A DNA stretch of 64,000 bases from Alligator mississippiensis (Eukaryota; Chordata; Crocodylia; Alligatoridae), in NCBI RefSeq assembly GCF_030867095.1, contig NC_081828.1:216473978-216537977 (forward strand), given 5' to 3'. Position 1 is the stretch's first letter; every line of letters starts with the position of its first letter. Positions 12,037 to 57,224 of the stretch are shown one piece after another. The notes under the pieces were generated by a model. That model saw only the letters and a program-made list of their open reading frames with translations. It ran no database searches and was not told the origin of the DNA. The translations under genes and the position numbers were made by a program.

Positions 12037-14829
12037 GTGGGCAAGGAAGGAGCCCCCCAGGGGGCACTTGCCTGCCTGTACACTAATGCCAGGAGCCTGG
12101 GGAATAAGCAGGAGGAGCTCATCCTCCTGCTCAGTGCAAACAATTACGATGTCATAGGGATCACGGAGACCTGGTGGGACCCCACCCATGACTGGACCAC
12201 GGGGATAGATGGCTATACCCTGTACAGGAGGGATCATGTAGAGAAAAGGGGCGGGGGTGTAGCTCTCTATGTTAAGGAAAGCTACGCGTCCCTGCAAGCC
12301 GATATTGGCGACCAGGGTGGACGGCTGGAGACCCTCTGGGTTAAAATCCGTGGGGAACACGGCACAGGGGACACAATGGTGGGAGGCTACTACAGACCTC
12401 CCACCCAAAGTCCTGAGCTAGACCAGGAGTTTGCCCAGGAACTGGCTGAGGCAGCTTGCTCCAGGACCATGGTTGTCATGGGTGACTTCAATTACCCAGA
12501 CATCTCGTGGGAGGATCGCTCAGCAAAATCTGAGCGGTCGCAGAGCTTCCTCTCGTGCGTGGATGACCTCTACCTCACTCAAGAAGTCTATGGGCCAACG
12601 AGAGGCAAAGCACTGCTCGACCTGGTGCTGGCTACTGGGGAGGACCTAGTCGGCGACCTAGTGATCGATGGGAAGCTGGGTGACAGCGACCACGAGCTGA
12701 TCACCTTCACCATCCGCCGAAAAGCTGGCAAGTCGGTCAGCAACACGCAAGTCCTTGACTTCAGGAAAGCCGACTTTGACAAGCTCAGGAGGCTTGTCAG
12801 TGAGGCCCTAAGGGACTGTGACCGCAGGGAGAGGGGAGTTCAAGAAGAGTGGTTGCTCCTCAAGGGAGCGATCCTCCATGCACAAACTAAATCTATTCCA
12901 TCTCGGAGGAAAGGCAGCAAGAGGGCACAACAGCCCCCCTGGCTCTCCAGGGACCTAGCAGACCTCCTGCGGCTAAAAAGAAAGGCCTACAAAGGATGGG
13001 AGTCACCTCCAAGGAGGATTATTCTGCACTGGTCCGGTCCTGTAGGGAGCTGACCAGGAAAGCCAAGGCTGCAACTGAACTCCAGCTAGCTTTGAGCATC
13101 AAGGACAATAAAAAGTCCTTTTTCAGATATGTGGGGAGCCGGAGGAAAAGCAGGGGCAACGTTGGACCCCTGCTGAACCAGATGGGGCAACTGACAACTG
13201 ACGCCCAGGAAAAAGCCAACCTATTAAATAGGTACTTTGCGTCGGTCTTTCATCAGCTCCATGGGACGTCTATGTGAACTACGGGACAGGGAGGTCTAGG
13301 TGAGGGTGATCCCCTGCCCTCCATTAATGCTGACTTTGTGAAGGAACATCTTGAGAAGCTGGATACCTTCAAGTCAGCCGGCCCTGACAATCTTCACCCC
13401 AGGGTACTCAAGGAGCTGGCGAGCATCATAGCCCAGCCTCTAGCGCGGATCTTGGAAAACTCTTGGCGCTCTGGTGTAGTGCCCGAAGACGGGAAGAAGG
13501 TCAATGTGGTGCCTATCTTCAAGAAAGGGAGGAAAGTGGATCCGGCTAACTATAGGCCCATTAGCCTGACTTCTATCCCGGGGAAGATCTTAGAAAAGTT
13601 TATTAAGGAGGCCATCCTTAATGGACTGGCCGACGCCAACATCTTAAGGGATAGCCAGCACGGGTTTGTTGCGGGTAGGTCTTGCTTGACCAATCTCATT
13701 TCCTTCTATGACCAGGTGACCTATCACCTGGACAAGGGAGATGAGATTGATTGATGTCATATATCTTGACTTCAAAAAAGCCTTCGATCTGGTGTCCCAT
13801 GATCGTCTCTTGGAGAAACTGGCCAATTGTCGCCTTGGGACCCCCACGATCCACTGGCTGGAAAATTGGCTCCGGGGTCGGACCCAGAGGGTAGTAATTG
13901 ATGGAAGTCACTCATCGTGGTGTCCTGTGACCAGTGGGGTCCCCCAGGGCTCTGTCCTTGGACCCATACTGTTCAACATCTTCATTAATGATGTGGACAC
14001 TGGAGTCAGAAGCGGACTGGCCAAGTTCGCCGATGACACCAAACTTTGGGGCAAAGCATCCACACCAGAAGACAGGCGGGTGATCCAGGCTGACCTGGAC
14101 AGGCTCAGCAAGTGGGCGGATGAGAATCTGATGGTGGTCAATGCCGATAAATGCAAGGTTCTCCACCTTGGGAAAAAAAACTCGCAGCATCCTTATAGGC
14201 TCGGCAGTGCTATGTTGGCTAGCACTATGGAAGAAAGAGACTTGGGGGTCATCATTGACCACAAGATGAACATGAGCCTGCAGTGCGATGCTGCGGCTAG
14301 TAAAGTGACCAAAACGCTGGCTTGCATCCATAGATGCTTCTCAAGCAAATCCCGGGACGTCATTCTCCCCCTGTACTCGGCCTTAGTGAGGCCGCAGCTG
14401 GAGTACTGCGTCCAGTTTTGGGCTCCACAATTCAAAAAGGATGTGGAGAAGCTTGAGAGAGTCCAGAGAAGAGCCACGCGCATGATCAGAGCTCAGGGAA
14501 GCAGACCCTACGATGACAGGCTGAGAGCCCTGGGGCTCTTTACCCTGGAAAAGCGCAGGCTCAGGGGTGATCTGATGGCCACCTACAAGTTTATCAGGGG
14601 TGACCACCAGTATCTAGGGGAACGTTTGTTCACCAGAGCGCCCCAAGGGATGACGAGGACGAATGGTCACAAACTGCTACAAGATCGTTTCAGGCTGGAC
14701 ATAAGGAAGAATTTCTTTACTGTCCGAGCCCCCAAGGTCTGGAACAGCCTGCCACCGGAGGTTGTTCAAGCGCCTTCATTGAACACCTTCAAGATGAAAC
14801 TGGATGCTTATCTTGCTGGGATCCTATGA
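12037..14829 (+). pseudogene. CR1 ORF2 (APE endonuclease + reverse transcriptase), lightly disrupted
   Basis: Segment 12037-13053 is the APE-type endonuclease: Asn18 (YTNARS), Glu44 (TETWW), Tyr118 (GGYYRPP), Asp150/Asn152 (MGDFN) and SDH 217-219. A shift near 12996 moves to frame 3 (12996-13754), which holds the linker and early RT blocks (AGPDNLHPRVLKE, NYRPISLTSI, GFVAGRSCLTNL). That frame is broken by a TGA at 13275-13277. A second shift near 13750, at a gattgatt duplication, moves to 13741-14829, with YLDFKKAFD, SGVPQGSVLGP, FADD (Asp98/Asp99) and the C-terminal WNSLPPEVV segment. All catalytic residues survive. The stop at 14827-14829 precedes a short 3' UTR of about 90 nt. Confidence 0.93.
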
Positions 14830-15204
14830 CCCCAGCTGACGTCCTGCCCTTTGGGCGGGGGGCTGGACTCGATGATCTTCCGAGGTCCCTTCCAGCCCTA
14901 ATGCCTATGAAACCTATGAAACTTTGTACCTGGCTGGCTCTTCTGACAGTTGGATGGACATTTTTTTTGAGTGATAATTACTTTACACATGCGGCTGGCC
15001 GATTTACCGTGCAATTAACTTGCTAATTGCATCATGTATGTACCGTATGGCAGGGGCCTTAAAAAGCTGACACTGAACACGGCACGTTCCCGACTTCCTC
15101 CGGCTAGCAGGAGGGCTCTGGAGCTGAAGCTGCCAGGAGCACCATTCACTCCCACCCTTCCTCCCATGGTGCTGCCAAATAAGGCAGGCAGCTAAGACCT
15201 AGAC

Positions 15205-47577: not shown

Positions 47578-48813
47578 CATAGATTCATAGATGTTAGGGT
47601 TGGAAAGGACCTCAACAGATCATCAAGTCCAACCCCCTGCCTGGACAGGAAAGAGCACTGGGATCAGATGCCCCCAGCCAGATGCTTACCCAGTCTTCTC
47701 TTAAAGACCCCCAAGGTAGGGGACAGCACCACCTCCCTTGGGAGCCCAGTCCAAATTTTGGCCACCCTTACCATGAAGAAATTTTTCCTGATATCCAACC
47801 TAAATCTGCTCTCTGTCAGTCTGTGACCACTGTTCCCTGTTATCCCAAGAGGCACCATGGTGAACAGCGCGTCTCCGATCCCTTGCTGCGTCCCCATAAT
47901 GAATTTGTAGGCGGCCACAAGATCACCTCTCAGCCGTCTCTTGCGGAGGCTGAAGAGGCCCAGGTCCCTCAGTCTTTCCTCATAGGGCTTGTCCTGTAAA
48001 CCCTTAACCATATGAGTGGTCTCCTCTGGACCCTCTCGAGTCTATCAACATCCTTCTTGAAGTGCGGTGTCCAAAACTGGACGCAGTCCTCCAACTGTGG
48101 TCTGACCAATGCCGCATAGAGGGGAAGTATCACCTCCTTGGATCTATTTGTCAAGCATCTGCTGATGCACGATAAAGTGCGGTTAGCTTTGCTGGTGATT
48201 TCGCCACGCTGATGACTCATGTTCATCTTGGCGTCCACCATGACTCCGAGATCCTTTTCTGCTTCTGTGCTGCGGAGAGGGTCACTTCCCAGCCAGTGGA
48301 TGTGCTGGATATTTTTGTGCCCTTGGTACAGCACTCTGCACTTGTCCTTGTTGTACTGCATCCTATTGTGTACTGCCCACTTTTCCAACCTGTCCAGGTC
48401 TGCCTGCAATCATTCCCTACCCTCCGGGGTGTGCGCTTCACCCCACAATTTAGTATCGTGCACGAACTTGGACAGAGTACACGTCACACCCACACCCAAG
48501 TCACTGATGAAGACATTGAAGAGTCCAGGTCCAAGGACCGAGCACTGCGGGATCCCACTACCCACATCCTTCCAGGTTGATACCGACCCATTTACTACCA
48601 CTCTCTGGATGCGACCGCTAAACCAATTTGCCACCCACTGGACTGTATAATCATCTAAGTCAAAGCCTCCTAATTTATTTATGAGAATGGGATGAGATAC
48701 CATATCGAAGGCCTTGCTAAAACCCAAGAAAATGACATCCGCCTCTACTCCTGCATCTAAGCATTTTGTGACTGTCATAAAACGAAACCAGACTGGTCAG
48801 GCAAGATCCATCT
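47578..48813 (-). mobile_element. CR1 LINE, 3' half of a copy split by a hAT insertion
   Basis: 3' end catagattcatagatgttag at 47578. The minus strand carries ORF2 from the RT palm to the C-terminus: SFYDSHKM, VIFLGFSKAFDMVSHP, SGIPQCSVLGPGLFNVFISD, FVHD in place of the catalytic FADD, then KDLGVMVDAKMNMSHQ and PYEERLRDLGLFSLRKRRLR. It begins exactly where the piece at 51257-52490 stops, so both are one insertion. Loss of the catalytic Asp and several shifts make it inactive. Confidence 0.93.
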
Positions 48814-49862
48814 CAGGGGCATCCAACCTTTATGAATGTGGGGTCAGATCACAAACTTTTTAATCACCCAGTGGGCCGGTAAGCCATATTCAAAGACCTC
48901 ACAGGAAGTGGTACCACATCAGGAAGTAATGTCACATGACCTTTGACACTAATGAAGTTGCAGGAAGTGACAATGAAATGGGTCTGGAAATGTGGTTTAA
49001 AATCCAAAATAAAAACAATATAAAAGCAAAAATGAAATAATACCAAACACTTGACTAAAATACACACTTGCGCTTCTACTCACTTCTCAACGAATGAAAG
49101 AAGCATAATGCTAGTCGACAGATCAAATGTGGAAAAGATACCAGCCAGAGTGGAAACTAATCAAAGCAACAAAATATGGGCATTTTTGAGAATAATCTTC
49201 GAGAAGATTTACTTTTATTGAATGAATAACTTGTTAGTAACACATCTTTAACAAGTAGTAACAAGTTGAACCCCCAATCCCGCACAAAGAGAAGCAGAAG
49301 CAAAACACAATCCAAACACTGGACAGTATTTTTACACAGATTTTTTGAGCGTAGCGTAGGCCCTGTAGCTAACAGAGCCAAAATTAATTTCAGTCATAGA
49401 AAAACTCATTTGGCAGAGACAGGTGAAGTTAAAAACAACTCGCCAGTTCAAAATCACCATTTTATTACTATATAATAATACTGTGGTATCAATATGGGCC
49501 CCCACCCATCAGGTACAGTCATAATATGTAAGGTACAGCCTGACACGTGCAGGTGCTGCCATCATATGCCAAGTGCAACCTCAAATGCTGATGGGGAGTC
49601 AGGGTAGGATTTAACCCATTCCTTAACCTGCATCCTGAATGTTGATTTCAACCAAAGGTATCAAAATTATTAAAATACTCCTTGCCACCATGAGTTTTTA
49701 AATTACAGCAAAGCAGATTTAGATCAAATCTCAGGAAAAGTGTACTCACTGTAAGAACAGGACAATGGAAAATGCCTAGGGAAGTTGTGGTTTTCAGCAA
49801 GTGTGTGCTGGTATGGCTTAGGAACAGGACATCATCTTTCTGTGCAGGGGGTTGGACTAGAT

Positions 49863-50195
49863 TAGGGCTGCCCAGCTGACTACCTGCAGGCCACATGTGG
49901 CCCACAAAGGGCCAGGATGTCGCCCACAGTCTACATGGGGTCTGCAAGCAGTTAATATATAAAGCATGGGCCTGGGCAGCCACCTCTCCCACTGCTGCGC
50001 AAGGGGGAAAGGCCCGGGGGGGGGGAAAGGAGTGGTCCATGTCCTGCTAATGTAGTCTGCATGGCTGAACATGGGGGTCTGCATGCTGCTGGAGCAGCCC
50101 GTGCAACGAGGGGGTCCTAGGGGCCCACAAGCAGCTTGTGCAAACATGCTGGTGTCATCTGGGGCCCCCAGCCTCACCAGATCTGAACAGCCCTG
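49863..50195. mobile_element. hAT-like MITE with 8-bp target duplication
   Basis: Left tagggctgcccagctgacta and right end, complement cagggctgttcagatctggt. Flanking octamers gactagat (49855-49862) and gactagct (50196-50203) agree at 7 of 8. It sits in a CR1-tail-like flank (gggggttggactag before, cttgagctctcttccacatc after). Confidence 0.82.
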
Positions 50196-50728
50196 GACTA
50201 GCTTATCCTTGAGCTCTCTTCCACATCTCTGCGGTATATGCCTACAATTTCTATTTAATTAACCACAATGACCATGTTATTTCCTGTTACTGGTTAACTG
50301 TTTTCTTCTAAAATTAAGACCACAGTAAAGTTAAATACCTGCATATAACACCACGGGACGTCCTTGATTTAGCACAACATGCTTGTTTTCAAGGATGAAT
50401 GCAGCTGGAGCCATAAGGGGAAGTTTGTGCTGTCCATTTCTGCCAACATAAAGTGTGTGCAAGTGTCCTTTGCTAACTTGATCATGGTCATTGTGGTTAA
50501 TTAAATAGAAATTCTAGGCATATACTGAAGAGAGGTGGAAGACATCTCAAGGATAAGCTAGTCCAGGGCTGTTCAGATCTGGTGAGGCTGGGGGTCCCAG
50601 ATGACACCTGCATGTGTTGCACAGGCTGCACGCTGTGGGGGTGGGCCTCTAGGACCCCCTCACTGCACGGGCTCTTCCAGCAGCATACAGACCCCCATCC
50701 TCAGCCACGCAGGCTACATTAGCAGGAC
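50041..50728. repeat. Large imperfect inverted repeat (arms about 240 nt, loop about 206 nt)
   Basis: Left arm 50041-50276, from gtcctgctaatgtagtctgc to aaccacaatgaccatg. Right arm 50483-50728 reads back as the complement, from catggtcattgtggtt to gctacattagcaggac. Each arm includes the end of the same hAT MITE plus its flank and target octamer, so the right arm is an inverted copy made after that MITE inserted. Confidence 0.9.
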
Positions 50729-50729
50729 C

Positions 50730-51170
50730 TGAACCGCCAAGGAGGCAGCTGGACGTAGACCGCCTCTGGGCCAGGCTCCTCCTGCCCAGCCCGGCCCTGG
50801 CAACCGCGTGCCCTGCAGCCCTGGCCCAGCCCCAAGGTGCTCCCAGCTCTGCATGGGAACTTACCCAGTGCCTCCGTCCACCGTGCATGCAGGCAGGGCG
50901 CAGGCCATGCTGCAGCTCCCCCGGCCACGCTCCGGGGGCAAGGGGCAGAGCCAGAGGAGAAGTCGCAGGCGCTGTCCCCAGCTCGTCCAGTCAGGTGCGG
51001 CTGGGGCAGCGGTGGTGGGACCCGACTCACAGGATGAGCCCGGCCCCATGGGGGTAAGCAGCTCCCCTCTTCTCGCTGCCGGCTGGGGCCTGCAGGCTGG
51101 CCCTGCCCTCCTCGCCTCGCCGCTGCCCCGTCACCGCCGTGGAGCATGGAGCAGGTGCCAGGACTCCTTG
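50730..51170. other. CpG-rich block
   Basis: About 440 nt, GC-rich with roughly 25-30 CpG by eye, much more than the flanks. Both strands have open frames, but none resembles a protein I know and composition alone explains them. It lies inside the hAT insertion, so it is either element sequence or captured DNA. It could act as a CpG island. Confidence 0.55.
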
Positions 51171-51256
51171 CCTGTCCTGAGCAAGGGATGTCAGGCCAGA
51201 GAAAATGGCTTGGTGGGCCGCATGGCGGCCCGTGGGTTGCATGTTGGACAAGCCTG

Positions 51257-52490
51257 ATCTACCTGCTACGAATCCATGCTGGTTTCCCTGCTGCATTATT
51301 TTTCCCACTGAACTCACACAAATATGATCCTTCATAATCTTTTCAAAGACCTTTCCAAGGATGGAGGTGAGACTGACTGGCCTAAAATGACTTGGATCCT
51401 CCTTCCCTCCCTTTTTGAAAGTAGGGACCGCATTGGCTCTTTTACAGTGCTCCAGGACCTGCACCGAGCACCACGCCACTCAAACAGCTGTGCCAGTGGT
51501 TGTGCTATGACACCGGCCAGTTCCTTCAGTACTCTTGGATGCAGCTCATCCGGCCCTGCCGACTTGAACACATCCAGTCCATCCAAGTGACCCTGCACCA
51601 AGTCAGCGTCAATGGTTGGTGGGCTGGTGTCCCTCTGATGCCCATCTAAGAGCCCATTAGGAGACTTATCTTGACCCCCATTCAGGAACACTGAAGCAAA
51701 CACTCATTGACTAGCTCAGCCTTGCCCCCACATCTGTCACTAATTGCTCCTTCTTGTTCAGCAGGGGTCCTATGCTGCCCTGCGTCTTCCTTTTACTCCC
51801 ATCATACCTAAAAAAACCTTTTCATTGTCTCTAATTTGTGTTGCCAGCTTCAGCTCTGTAGTTGCTTTGGCCTTTCTAACTGCCTCCCTGCAAGTGCAGG
51901 CCAAGTAGGTATACTCCTCCTTGGTAGCTTCCCCCTGCTTCCACCACCTATATGCCTTCTTTTTTGCCCTTAGACTCCCCTGGAATTCCCTGTTTAACCA
52001 AGGAAGTTTTTTCCCCCTTTTCCAACGTACTGGGATCGTCTCCCTCTGCACCCGAAGCATCGCTTCCTTCAGGAACAACTACCCTGCCTGGGCTCCCATC
52101 TCGCCAGTACTCCTATCCTGCAGTGCATCACTGACCACTCCTGAGCACACTGAAGTTAGCTTTCCTAAAGGCAAGCACTTCCACCCTACTAGTTATCTTA
52201 CCCACCCTACACCGTATGGTGAATTTGATTGATTGGTGGTCACTGTCCCCAAGGTGACCACGAATCTGCAGCTCCCCTACCAGGTCCTCCCCCATAGCCA
52301 ACACCAAGTCCAGTAAGGCATTCCCCCTGATGGGACCGTATCCCTCCAGCGGTAGGTGAAGGTCCTGCATGCAGGTTACGAACCTATGTGAACAGTTGGA
52401 TTTGGCCGACTGCTCCTCCCAGCAGACGTCCGGGTAGTTGAGGTCCCCCATGACAACCACGTCCCTAGACTGTATGGCCTCTTGGTCCAG
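51257..52490 (-). mobile_element. CR1 LINE, 5' half of the split copy
   Basis: The minus strand runs from the endonuclease (VVMGDLNYPDVCWEEQS, NALLDLVLAMGEDLVGEL, GDSDHQSIKFTI) through the linker (REAVRKAKATTELKLATQIR) to early RT (SAGPDELHPRVLKELAGVIA, QPVSLTSILGKVFEK-type, NQHGFVAGRS). It is 5' truncated at 52490, where hAT sequence follows. Several frame shifts are present. Confidence 0.93.
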
Positions 52491-52635
52491 TGGTTCTCAA
52501 CCTTTCTAGACTCAAAACACACCCCTCAGAATATACTGCCTCTTGGCTTTCTCTCATTTTTTTATGACTACAGAAAAAAAAAAAAGAGAGCAATTTTTCC
52601 GTTGCAAAGAACTCAGAAAGGCCACAACAGGTCAG
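52488..52635. mobile_element. hAT-Charlie-like fragment
   Basis: Starts cagtggttctcaacctttct then agactcaaaacac, and includes ttatgactacagaaaa. The same order of words occurs at 63684-63780, so it is one family. Confidence 0.65.
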
Positions 52636-52637
52636 AA

Positions 52638-53000
52638 CAAGGGTGCTCAACCTCCGGCCCGCAGGCCAAATGCAACCCTGCAATCTGCTCCCCAGGGCTA
52701 CCCCTTGGGTTGGGAAATTTGGCCATGGGGGAAGCAGTGGCCATGAATACTACCACCCTTCCCCCTCCCAAATTCCTAAACCCCAAACTTTGCACAACTG
52801 GTCAGAGCGAGACGGCAGCCATCCCACTGTGGGACCAAGTTACATCCCACAGAGCTGGGTTGGGCAGGATGCCCCCTGGCCCCCTTCGCATGGCTGGATG
52901 GTGCCTATTTGCATCCACCTTGGGCACCAGATCGGGACCAATAGCCAGATCGGGCCTGAAGATGGACAAGGCATTGCCCATCCAGCCTGCACTGCTGACT
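52638..53000. mobile_element. GC-rich hAT-like fragment
   Basis: Left end caagggtgctcaacctccgg plus cccgcaggcc is a typical hAT terminus. The expected complementary right end is missing, so it may be truncated by the retroelement at about 53110. Confidence 0.5.
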
Positions 53001-53109
53001 GAATGCTGACTCCAGTATGGATTCCTACTTGAAATCCCTGGGTTTGTTTTTGAGCCAGGTGTAGGAGTGCCATAGGAGGCCCTATGGAGATGTGGAAACC
53101 CGTTAAACT

Positions 53110-54400
53110 TTGGTACCATCATCAGACTCATGCTCGATGACATGACAGCAACCACTCTAAGCAGTAGCTTGGAAATGGACCCTTTGTTATTACAACTGGA
53201 GTCAAGCAAGGATGTGCAACTGCACCAATACTTTTACATCTACACTGCAGCTATTCCACGCCTCATTGCTGACTGGATGCTGACTCTGAATGAAGCTTAT
53301 GTCACACGGACAGGAATCTCTTTAACATCAAATGGTTATGCTCCAAATCACAGACAACCAGCACCTCCATTACTGATCTTCAATACACTGATGACTGCGT
53401 TGTGTGTGCCTACGCAACAGAAAAGTTCAGGTCACTCCTGATTGCTTCTGTGAAGCTTATGGAAACTTCGGACTCGTGGTCAATTTCACAAAAACCAAGA
53501 TACAGTGCTTTACCAAGCCACTGCACCCCAACCAGCTTCTCTTCCACATGCTACATTTGAAGACAACCCTTGGAGAAAGTCGAGCATTCCCCCTTATTTG
53601 GGTAGCCATCTTTCCCAGAAAGCAAACGTAGACAACTATATTCAACATCAGATAATATCTGCTAGTGCAGATGGCTCCAAAGTTGTGTCTTTGATGAGCA
53701 TGACATCAAGACTCAAACCAAACGTCTTGTCTACCAGGCTGTTGTGTCATTCTTACCCTACTGCATGGGTGTGAAGTCTGGATGACGCATCAAAAACATC
53801 GAACGCCTTGTAACATCTTCCTACTCCTGTACACGTTGAAGGTCCTTGGTGACCTTTCATGCATATGCTTATGTCTTCAGAAAATTCTCTGCATCAACGG
53901 GAAGAACAGACATCAGCGGTCTGGGCTCAAGCCAACTCTACCAGCACTGAAGCCATGTTTTTATGGCATCAGGTCCATTGGACAAGGCTTGTCACAAGGA
54001 CGCCTGATAACTGGCTCCAGGTCCTATACTCCCAACTCACCAAAGGCCACCACTCTAGAGGTGAGCAATGGGAGAAATTCAAGGACACTTTGCAAGCCAA
54101 TCTGAAGAAATATGGTATTCATGTCACACTTGGGCAACTTGAGTATTGAATTATCCCCAGTGGCTCTGTGATATACAAGAAGGCATGCATCATTTACAAC
54201 AAGCTGGAGGTGGACAGACAACAGACAAAGGTCCTGACATTATCAGGTCCCACTCCGTCCTCCCAGAACTATTTGCCATGTCCGCAGTCGAACGTGCAGA
54301 TCTCAGACTGATCTCCTCAGCCACCTCCAAATTCATTGATGACTTCCCTATCGATTGGAAGACTGTCCTCCCCATATTGAGGGCTTGCCAACAATGATGT
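53110..54400 (+). pseudogene. Decayed reverse transcriptase of a second non-LTR family
   Basis: Across three frames: GVKQGCATAP at about 53198 (RT motif B), a GLVVNFTKTKIQCF stretch, a PYCMGVKSG-like segment where YGCE-W is usual, HQVHWTRLVTRTPDNWLQVL, then GEQWEKFKDTLQANLKKYGI at 54060-54120. This C-terminal 'GHxxR..KR.KDTLKANLK' layout belongs to non-LTR elements outside CR1 (an RTE-like group is my best guess). There are many stops and shifts and no functional protein. Confidence 0.7.
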
Positions 54401-57224
54401 TTGCACACCTAACAGCATTAGTATCACACAGCATTGCACAGCCGCAGCCAGGCTAAGAATCATTACTATAATCTGACTTTATAACACAGACCAAAGAATA
54501 TCATCTCTTTGCACCTATTTTGAGCCTAAAAAAATTATAACCAACTAAATCATCTTACAGGAAAGCATCTAGACTTCATTTAAAGACAAAGAGGTATACA
54601 CAATGTGATGCTTCTCTTGATTTTTATTTATTAACTTTTGCAATACCGTTACTGAACAAACCTCAGGGGTGACAAAAAAGGGCAGGTATGTGCTGAGGTG
54701 GTGACACTTAACTTTTTTTAGTACGCATTTCCCAGATATTTAAGTTTAGTCACTCATTTCATTTGGGAAGGGCATGAGTCATCAGTGGACAGCCCTAACC
54801 CTGCACAAATGAAGCTGCCATCAAGCATGAAATTCTATCAGTCCCAAGAAGGCAAAAGCTCTACGAATCATTATGTGCCATCACTTTATATCACTGGGTA
54901 GCTGAGTTTCCATTAGCAACCAAGTGAATTTTTAAGCAAATGCCAAAGCATCAAGCAGTTCTAATTCCTTAACTAGGTAATTAATAGAAATAAAAGGAAG
55001 TAGTCAAAAAAGCCTCATTTGAATATTTACAGTGTGCAGAACACAAAAAAAAAAAATCATAAAAATGTATTCAGGACGTGAAGACCCATTTATACTTTGT
55101 GAAAACAGCTATTTAGAAGCAATTGTCTTGTACCTACCCTTGCGATAATTGTATGGAAACATGGTTTTTAAGATCCCAAGTCCCTGTGTTCCTGCTGCTT
55201 TTTCTTTATTGAAGTCATAATCCCTGTTCAGTCACAGCTGGTTACTATGGAAATTATTAAATCACAGACAGAACATTGACTTCACACGAGGTACAAGGGG
55301 AACAAGGCAGGCTCTGAAAATTAAATACCCTGTTTTAATGTCAGCATCTCCAAAAATCCTAAATAATTACATATATCATCTCTCTTACACTTCTTGATTA
55401 ATCAAACACATTTATGATCAAAAAATAAATTAATTTATGCGGCCAATCAAATAACCTCAAGTGAACTATGAAGGGCTGGACTGTCCTCTTTTAAATATTC
55501 TTTATTATTCTTGATTTTTTTTGCAATTCATGGAATAGCGACGGTCTTCAGTGGCATGGAAATCCATGCACTAGCTACAACAAAAGCAATCATTCCGCAG
55601 TATATGAAGAAACAAGGAGGATGCAATCACAAATGTCTTCAAAGAGATTTAGCTAGCTGAAGAGTCTGACAGGGCAGAAACAAGGCATATTTGACCTAGG
55701 AAGACCCAAAAATAGAAATAAATAGCTCTCTCAAATGAGGTCAATTTTAAAAACTCATAAATGTTGGCAAACATTCCATCATTGCTGAGCTTTTGCCCTC
55801 CGAACAAATGCTACAACATAGGAACTAAAACAAAGTTGTAAAGATCAGGGATTACAAAGAGAACTTGGATGAAGCCTAGGCTGTGAATATTTTCATTTTT
55901 AGCAGTGAAGTAGTCCCCAGTCCCCAAACGGAGCATTGCCCCACTTCATCACTCCCCTCAAGGACCAGACCGGAAGAGAAGCATGCAAGCATGCGTCCAT
56001 CCTTGCAAAAGAAACTCTCATAAGAGAGATCTTCCAGGTTTAGACCTGGAAAATCTTCTCCCAGAAGAGGCATGTTTCCCCCAGGAGATATTAAGCGAAC
56101 GCTTGTACTGGGAGAACCACAATTCTCTCAGGAGAAATGCAATGCCTATATGTGGCCCTGAACTACGCAGAGGCCCCCACATCTCAGTATCGTCTTGAAA
56201 CTTTGGTACAATGAGTTAAGTAAAGAGCAACCAACAGCGCAACAATTTTAATTCCATTAATTATTAGTTTATTGGCAAGGTTTTTGTCCCTATTTAAACT
56301 AAATTTTTTTCTTTTAAAGAAGTATCTCCCTTGACAGAGGCCGACTTGAGGGCATTGGGAAGCTACTCCAACATTCCTGCTTCTAGCAAGTGACTGATAC
56401 GCATCAGCTGTGCTGCTGTCATGTTACAGTGGGGCACCATGATCTTGTTGACACCACGTCTCTGGTGTGCCCACAAAGGGATGCTGCGTCTGAGAAACCT
56501 GCAAATGGTGCCCTGGGGATGTCTCAAGCAGCTGCATCAGGGGAGCTGCTCCATCGTGCAGTTCCAGCGTGGTGCATGAAAGCAGGAGTGGATGGATGTG
56601 CTCAGATGCATCCCTCCCCAGACACAGTGCAGATGCATCCCTAATAAAATTGGTGATATTTCCTTCAAATCTGCTGAGAGGGGATGTGCACTGATGGAAC
56701 CACTTGGTGAAGCATTTAATAGTCTACCCCACTGCTACAAGCAGGTTTGCAATGAGGCTTTTCACTATCTTCACCTAGGCTCGTGCACTGTAGTGAAATC
56801 ATAGCCCGACTGAGAATCCTGCTAGAAAATACAGGATCTTCCCTTCAGGGAGAACCAGCAAGCCACCCTGTCATGCTGTTAAGGAAACACTCTCATGTGT
56901 GCATGAGTGCAAGGAGCTGCCAGATTGCAAGCATCTAAAATTATTAACATCTGAAGGGTAAATCGGCGTTCGTCTTGCATAAGAGTCTGAAAACTCTCTC
57001 CAAGGAAAACCACATCTATTGTGCCATGGTAGTAAACAACCAGCAATTCTTCCAAATCACAGTGTATGCATGAGAGGTCACCAGGACCCTCAATGTGTAC
57101 ACCTAGGCAGGAGTATGGAGGCGTGGAGGCTGCCCAGACCTTCCACCCGCCTTTAGACCATTGAGACAGAATCCAAAGAGCAGACCGAGTCCAGATGTTT
57201 GGTAGCTCGATGGCTGTAGTTATA
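54401..57224. other. AT-rich intronic sequence
   Basis: 54600-55800 is clearly AT-rich with A runs. No gene, LINE or MITE boundary is recognised. Confidence 0.45.

What the first reader, a model, noticed from the sequence alone, without database searches (positions are those of the whole stretch)
48806..51264. 2.44-kb hAT-type insertion splits one CR1, and removing it restores the reverse transcriptase frame
The CR1 pieces 47578-48813 and 51257-52490 are minus-oriented and end at the same place in ORF2. If the segment 48814-51256 and one octamer are taken out, the frame reads GRSCLTSLVSFYD, as in other CR1 proteins. The octamers atccatct and atctacct differ at two positions. Together this is strong evidence for a single insertion with 8-bp duplication, larger than the usual MITE and without visible transposase, so possibly a new non-autonomous hAT family.
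Basis: partly seen in the sequence, partly recalled or inferred. Interest (0 to 1): 0.75.

Follow-up and report, generated by a model that had tools for sequence, protein, structure and literature searches.

The report
Transposase-less hAT inside an alligator CR1
A 2.4-kb stretch that interrupts an old retrotransposon in what appears to be the alligator genome is an ancient cut-and-paste jumping gene that has lost its own enzyme but kept the ends of a larger, enzyme-coding relative found elsewhere in the same genome; the kind is well known, though its inner structure is unusually composite.

Summary
Window 48814-51256 is one hAT insertion in a minus-strand CR1, between octamers ATCCATCT and ATCTACCT; joining the flanks restores HGFVAGRSCLTSLVSFYD, and another CR1 in the window is uninterrupted there. 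A second full copy has exactly the same ends (89%). At 28 of 39 places examined an 8-bp duplication could be read (18 at 8/8, 8 at 7/8, 2 at 6/8), each with TA at positions 4-5 in at least one flank: the nnnTAnnn of the Buster group. It is not a free-standing family: larger copies carry the same ends around a ~2-kb GTF2IRD2-like hAT transposase gene, open over 627 codons in L034. The window copy lost that gene at a junction shared with two other copies. Its middle holds a CR1 tail split by a second hAT, at the same place in 8 of 8 copies, and an inverted repeat. Age very roughly 70-120 My. New member of a known kind; novelty against Repbase not testable. Lead: the transposase groups with axolotl and a glass sponge, suggesting horizontal transfer.

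The parts
51257..52490 (-). 5'-side piece of the interrupted CR1 (reverse-transcriptase region)
   Evidence: 63.6% identical to the in-window CR1 at 13609-12470; frame continues across the joined site
47578..48813 (-). 3'-side piece of the same CR1, down to its 3' tail
   Evidence: 66.8% identical to the in-window CR1 at 14911-13850
48806..48813 (.). left target-site octamer ATCCATCT (probably the mutated copy)
51257..51264 (.). right target-site octamer ATCTACCT (fits nnnTAnnn)
   Evidence: TA consensus
48814..51256 (+). whole inserted hAT element (q1-2443; q = window position minus 48813)
   Evidence: exact same ends in L009, 89% identity
48814..49345 (+). left end, q1-532; 93-95% identical at 31 listed places
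49340..49345 (.). deletion junction (6-base overlap) where ~2 kb of transposase gene is missing; same junction in L009 and, with one extra T, in L011
49346..49679 (+). stretch that lies directly beyond the 5' end of the transposase gene in larger copies (shared to q796, q842 or q866, depending on the copy)
49705..49862 (+). CR1 3'-tail fragment inside the element, first half (left border approximate)
   Evidence: local alignment score 87 against a maximum of 40 in 500 mononucleotide shuffles
49855..49862 (.). left octamer of the nested hAT, GACTAGAT
49863..50195 (+). nested second hAT, 333 bp, ends TAGGGCTGCCCAG...CTGAACAGCCCTG
   Evidence: same place in 8 of 8 copies that hold both its ends
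50196..50203 (.). right octamer of the nested hAT, GACTAGCT
50196..50231 (+). CR1 3'-tail fragment, second half (right border approximate)
50034..50276 (+). first arm of the inverted repeat
   Evidence: 87% to the second arm
50277..50482 (.). 206-bp spacer between the arms; opposite direction in L017
   Evidence: 94-98% in other copies; 98% on the opposite strand in L017
50483..50735 (-). second arm: inverted copy of part of the nested hAT plus the CR1 tail end and what follows it
50728..51193 (+). GC-rich right part shared with the family (q1915-2380); holds a ~57-bp stretch that is repeated in larger copies
   Evidence: 39 other genome places among 40 scored candidates, 72-82%
51194..51256 (+). 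right end, q2381-2443, ...GTTGGACAAGCCTG

Best explanation
The segment is one cut-and-paste insertion of a non-autonomous element of a Buster-type hAT family. A transposase-bearing element (left end, ~600-aa GTF2IRD2-like transposase gene read right to left, 5' region, GC-rich repeats, right end; about 3.8-5.4 kb in the copies measured) acquired a CR1 tail and then a second hAT in its 5' region, together with an inverted duplication; a derivative lost the transposase gene by an internal deletion with a 6-base overlap; transposase supplied in trans then moved this derivative into the CR1 reverse-transcriptase gene, cutting a staggered nnnTAnnn site and leaving the octamer on both sides. Shown: ends, duplications, shared junctions, larger copies with transposase. 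Inferred: mobilisation in trans, the order of the internal events, and interrupted gap repair as the cause of the deletion.
For: Octamers and restored CR1 frame; second full copy with identical ends, L009; 28 of 39 places with readable 8-bp duplications; TA at positions 4-5 (20 loci: T 38/40, A 40/40; 8 more loci: 15 of 16 octamers); transposase gene between q532 and q527 in L029, L030 and L035, and a similar arrangement joined at q434 in L031-L034; same deletion junction in window, L009, L011; 627-codon stop-to-stop frame in L034, with Pfam zf-C2H2_12; of 20 aligned proteins 7 match Dimer_Tnp_hAT and 15 DUF4371; the model of the axolotl relative matches Hermes transposase, the nine PDB chains with E <= 0.001 all being Hermes.
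Against: The window octamers match at only 6 of 8, and so do L009's. Only one other full-length 2.4-kb copy was found; the rest are further deleted or truncated. 11 of 39 places gave no scored duplication, and L033, which has both ends, shows none. In 6 of the 28 a border was placed by eye or with the octamer's help. The places are top-scoring hits, not a random sample. L034's match to DUF4371 is below threshold (E 0.013) and Dimer_Tnp_hAT was not detected in it. The match to Hermes is of moderate quality (TM-score 0.42-0.47 by query, 12-14% identity). Nothing shows that L034's protein acts on these ends.
Confidence: 0.93

Rival explanations
1. A separate non-autonomous hAT family with no autonomous partner left in the genome.
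For: The 2.44-kb form as a whole has only one other continuous full copy among the candidates scored, and its middle (q867-1914) was not found in the ten other transposase-bearing places examined, L030-L039.
Against: q1-532, q527-796/842 and right-end sequence lie in transposase-bearing copies in the same order; L029 carries transposase together with the CR1 tail and nested hAT.
Confidence: 0.05
2. Left and right ends come from two unrelated insertions that happen to flank the CR1 gap.
For: Left and right halves differ in composition, and 11/16 end repeats are weak on their own.
Against: Both ends recur together between matching octamers at 28 of 39 places, the window included, and L009 has the whole segment.
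Confidence: 0.02
3. The middle was built during interrupted gap repair that copied filler from other sites, rather than by successive nested insertions.
For: Middle modules differ between subfamilies at recurring borders (q796, q842, q866, q1915); an inverted duplication; a short overlap at the transposase deletion.
Against: The nested hAT has its own octamers at the same place in 8 of 8 copies, so that step at least looks like a true transposition; the CR1 piece aligns with a CR1 3' tail.
Confidence: 0.4
4. Assembly artefact or segmental duplication.
For: Segmental copies of a related element do exist on C1 (L036 and L037 99.6% over 6.5 kb).
Against: Window and L009 lie at separate places with different flanking octamers and differ by K2P 0.093.
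Confidence: 0.01

Closest known systems
Buster group of the hAT superfamily (Mar of Drosophila; TcBuster seen only as a search listing)
   Same: 8-bp duplications with nnnTAnnn consensus; the Mar paper states this consensus, that Mar MITEs arose by internal deletion, and that the Mar transposase is close to a GTF2IRD2-like protein of Xenopus (PMC3517528, passages seen)
   Different: Here the deleted form is large (2.4 kb) and carries a CR1 tail, a second hAT and an inverted repeat
[quoted passage not shown]
   Same: L034 frame 77% identical to an axolotl protein over 93% of the query, and 100% to a 381-aa Alligator entry over 61%
   Different: Here the frame lies between transposon ends with a 7/8 target duplication (L034), so it is a transposon gene rather than an established host gene
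MITEs
   Same: No transposase gene, ends shared with a transposase-bearing element, several copies
   Different: Far larger and with few full-length copies; better called a non-autonomous deletion derivative

Membership tests
hAT superfamily | 8-bp target-site duplication (PMC3942097 and PMC3517528, passages) | tested here: met
   28 of 39 places scored: 18 at 8/8, 8 at 7/8, 2 (window, L009) at 6/8
hAT superfamily | Short terminal inverted repeats (10-25 bp in PMC3942097) | tested here: met
   Left CAGGGGTGTCCAACCT and right CAGGCTTGTCCAACAT in typical copies, about 13/16; 11/16 in the window; by eye. The window's two ends alone align weakly
hAT superfamily | Partner with a hAT transposase (Hermes-like fold, C-terminal dimerisation domain) | tested here: met
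   the dimerisation domain is seen in 7 of 20 aligned proteins but not in L034 itself
Buster group | nnnTAnnn target consensus (PMC3517528) | tested here: met
   T 38/40 at position 4, A 40/40 at position 5
Buster group | Transposase groups with Buster rather than Ac or Tip in a tree | not tested
   The tree held no labelled Ac, Buster or Tip references; only the stated closeness of a GTF2IRD2-like protein to a Buster element
MITE | Short (under about 0.6 kb, recalled) and of high copy number | tested here: not met
   2443 bp; one other continuous full copy, with 40 of 2829 candidates scored, so the copy number is a lower bound
New family absent from Repbase/Dfam | No entry at 80% identity over 80% length (rule recalled) | not testable with these tools
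   Neither library is held; the titles and abstract starts listed name no such element, and one search listed no paper

The most novel reading that the evidence does not exclude
The autonomous element entered the crocodilian lineage by horizontal transfer, from a source shared with salamanders and even a glass sponge, then spawned non-autonomous forms with exchangeable middles that amplified some 70-120 My ago, one of them carrying a nested transposon and a CR1 fragment as passengers.
Probability: 0.4. Interest if true: 0.45.

Novelty: new member of a known kind. Interest (0 to 1): 0.3.

Why it matters
It gives a clean worked case of how a DNA transposon loses its enzyme, picks up other transposons and is still multiplied, with larger parent-type copies, a shared deletion junction and a paralogous empty site all visible in one genome. 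It also points to a transposase shared by alligator, axolotl and a glass sponge that would be worth testing for horizontal transfer.

Tried and rejected
Rfam search of the window at gathering thresholds: 0 matches. PDB by sequence with L034 and with profile A1: one weak unrelated match each; only the fold comparison reached Hermes. A two-insertion chimera and an independent family were considered and rejected. A plain BLAST of the window's CR1 pieces against the element at E 1e-3 found no CR1 in it; the tail was seen only by short matches and by the alignment, whose control used mononucleotide shuffles. I first read the alignment of L042 as sharing the window's transposase deletion; one search showed a different junction, so it is not counted. 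A genome-wide count of copies with the composite middle (probes 50277-50482 and 49863-50195) and of the left end alone (48814-48990) did not complete, so no such copy numbers are given. Empty site in another crocodilian: not tested; no such genome was searched.
Full report
OBSERVATION. The window stretch 48814-51256 lies between two minus-strand CR1 pieces. The eight bases before it are ATCCATCT and those after it ATCTACCT. When the flanks are joined with the right octamer kept, the CR1 frame reads HGFVAGRSCLTSLVSFYD. A different CR1 on the + strand of the same window (matched at 12470-14911) reads HGFVAGRSCLTNLISFYD at this point and has no insert there. A local alignment of the window's two ends alone was weak (score 7 over 40 nt), so the case rests on the octamers and on other copies.

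COPIES ELSEWHERE. The window lies in an assembly of 2.35 Gb (G000). A search with 48806-51264 scored 40 of 2829 candidates. One other place (C5:37489014-37491494, minus; L009) matches q1-2443 (q = window position minus 48813) end to end at 89%. Other copies with parts of the composite middle are deleted or truncated: L012, L013 and L014 share one deletion (q164 joined to q1007-1009), L010 has another (q215 to q722), L011 stops at q1449, L016 starts at q1426, L015/L029 ends at q1560, and L017 has its spacer in the opposite direction. One search lists 31 further places whose main match is about q1-532, at 93-95%. Of 11 of these that I fetched as L018-L028, 10 also show the right end; for L027 none was found in the stretch fetched.

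TARGET DUPLICATIONS. I examined 39 places: window; L009-L028; L030-L039; L040-L047 (L029 is the same place as L015). They are top-scoring hits, not a random sample. In 28 I could read octamers on both sides: 18 match at 8/8, 8 at 7/8 (L010, L013, L014, L024, L034, L041, L042, L047) and 2 at 6/8 (window, L009). Eleven were not scored: an end missing or outside the stretch fetched in L011, L015/L029, L016, L027, L036-L039 and L043; L031, which gives 7/8 only if the left border is moved by a base; and L033, whose ends are both present (last bases altered) but show no duplication. In six of the 28 (L010, L014, L017, L018, L030, L035) I placed at least one border by eye or with the octamer's help. 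In the 20 loci tabulated, position 4 is T in 38 of 40 octamers and position 5 is A in 40 of 40. In the other eight (L010; L040-L042 and L044-L047) TA stands there in 15 of 16 octamers. This is the nnnTAnnn given for the Buster group in PMC3517528 (passages seen).

PARENT ELEMENT. In L029 the left end is followed by about 2 kb that reads, on the opposite strand, as a broken transposase gene, and then by q527-1560. L030-L035 have the same order: left end, transposase, q527-796 or -842, a variable middle, GC-rich sequence, right-end sequence. Lengths run from about 3.8 kb (L030, 1041-4793) through 4377 (L034), 4861 (L031) and 5307 bp (L032) to about 5.4 kb (L033). L034 holds a stop-to-stop frame of 627 codons. 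Its Pfam match is zf-C2H2_12 (E 2.6e-8), with DUF4371 below threshold. Of 20 aligned proteins (L034 and 19 relatives), 20 match zf-C2H2_12, 15 DUF4371 and 7 Dimer_Tnp_hAT. The predicted structure of the axolotl relative P0001 (mean pLDDT 82) matches Hermes transposase: the nine PDB chains with E <= 0.001 are all Hermes (best 6.8e-10, worst 2.2e-8; TM-score by query 0.42-0.47). Sequence alone did not reach Hermes.

WHAT WAS LOST. Larger copies read ...AAGATTTTTACCTG... at the left border (L029, L030, L035) and ...CCATTTTTTGAGCG... at the right one (L029, L030); window, L009 and L011 read ...AGATTTTTTGAG..., with one extra T in L011, so one deletion with a short overlap removed the transposase gene and was inherited by all three. 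Internal deletion is also the origin given for the Mar MITEs. Movement in trans by a parent's transposase is inferred.

THE MIDDLE. A CR1 3' tail in plus orientation occupies about 49705-49862 and 50196-50231 (alignment score 87; maximum of 500 mononucleotide shuffles 40). A plain BLAST of the window's CR1 pieces at E 1e-3 did not find it. A 333-bp second hAT (49863-50195) splits it, with octamers GACTAGAT and GACTAGCT. It sits at the same place in 8 of 8 copies that hold both its ends (window, L009-L015); the right octamer is GACTAGCT in all 8, the left one GACTAGAT in 6 and one base different in L011 and L015. It was therefore there before these copies spread. Part of the second hAT and the CR1 end recur as an inverted copy beyond a 206-bp spacer (87%); in L017 the spacer runs the other way. 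Beyond q796, q842 or q866 other copies have different middles; in L040, L042 and L044 the shared sequence resumes at q1915. Whether successive insertions or filler from gap repair made this is open.

RIGHT PART. 50736-51256 matches 39 other places at 72-82% (40 of 1072 candidates scored). Eight of these were fetched as L040-L047: seven have a left end and a duplication of 7/8 or 8/8, and L043 has no left end.

AGE. The left end of the window copy is K2P 0.041 from a majority consensus of 18 copies (range 0.017-0.047, window included). Window and L009 differ by 0.055 in the left end and 0.093 over the whole element. With 3.9e-10 substitutions per site per year, the crocodilian rate used in PMC4299795 (passage seen), these give roughly 105, 70 and 119 My. 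The source itself calls the rate rough.

HOST. The 381-aa protein P0002, named by its source as from Alligator (name cut after 'miss'), is 100% identical to part of the L034 frame. I therefore take the genome to be the American alligator's or a very close relative's.

HORIZONTAL TRANSFER LEAD. Of 287 matches the best 120 are listed. The best full-length relative is from axolotl (77% over 93% of the query). Others near the top are unnamed proteins, the frogs Bombina (60%) and Discoglossus (57%), and a glass sponge (Oopsacas, 69% over 65%). Among the names shown, no amniote other than Alligator appears, but most entries have no name. In a FastTree tree of L034 and the 114 listed proteins of at least 440 aa, alligator and axolotl pair with support 0.999, and the sponge lies in a clade of six with alligator, axolotl, the two frogs and one unnamed protein (0.981; midpoint root). 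This suggests transfer, or contamination of the sponge record. No synonymous-site test was possible.

VERDICT. A real, old, single insertion; ordinary in mechanism, with well documented parent-type copies and a composite middle.

Noticed in passing
G000 C1:471.3-477.4 Mb; L036, L037: 22 of the 40 places listed lie in this 6-Mb stretch. The two fetched (L036, L037) are 99.6% identical over 6.5 kb and lack the left end, which suggests segmental amplification rather than transposition.
   Followed up: partly
L034:3302-5182: A 627-codon open transposase frame between transposon ends; 381 residues of it equal a public Alligator protein named as a GTF2IRD2A isoform, so that entry looks like a transposon gene.
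   Followed up: partly
window 52488-52560: The CR1 5' side stops where a different hAT-like end begins (CAGTGGTTCTCAACC..., resemblance recalled), after CTTGGTC; a simple pattern search of 52400-56000 did not show its other end.
   Followed up: partly
window 12470-14911: A long CR1 on the + strand without the insert, used here as the empty-site control.
   Followed up: yes
L018-L028 except L024 and L027, element positions about 708-1640: Copies without transposase and with the same ends have a middle of mutually inverted and direct repeats that varies in length, as if arrays expanded between the ends.
   Followed up: no
L035:5323-6552 in element orientation: A transposase-bearing copy carries a CR1 piece about 78% identical to the window's CR1 over 1.2 kb.
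   Followed up: no
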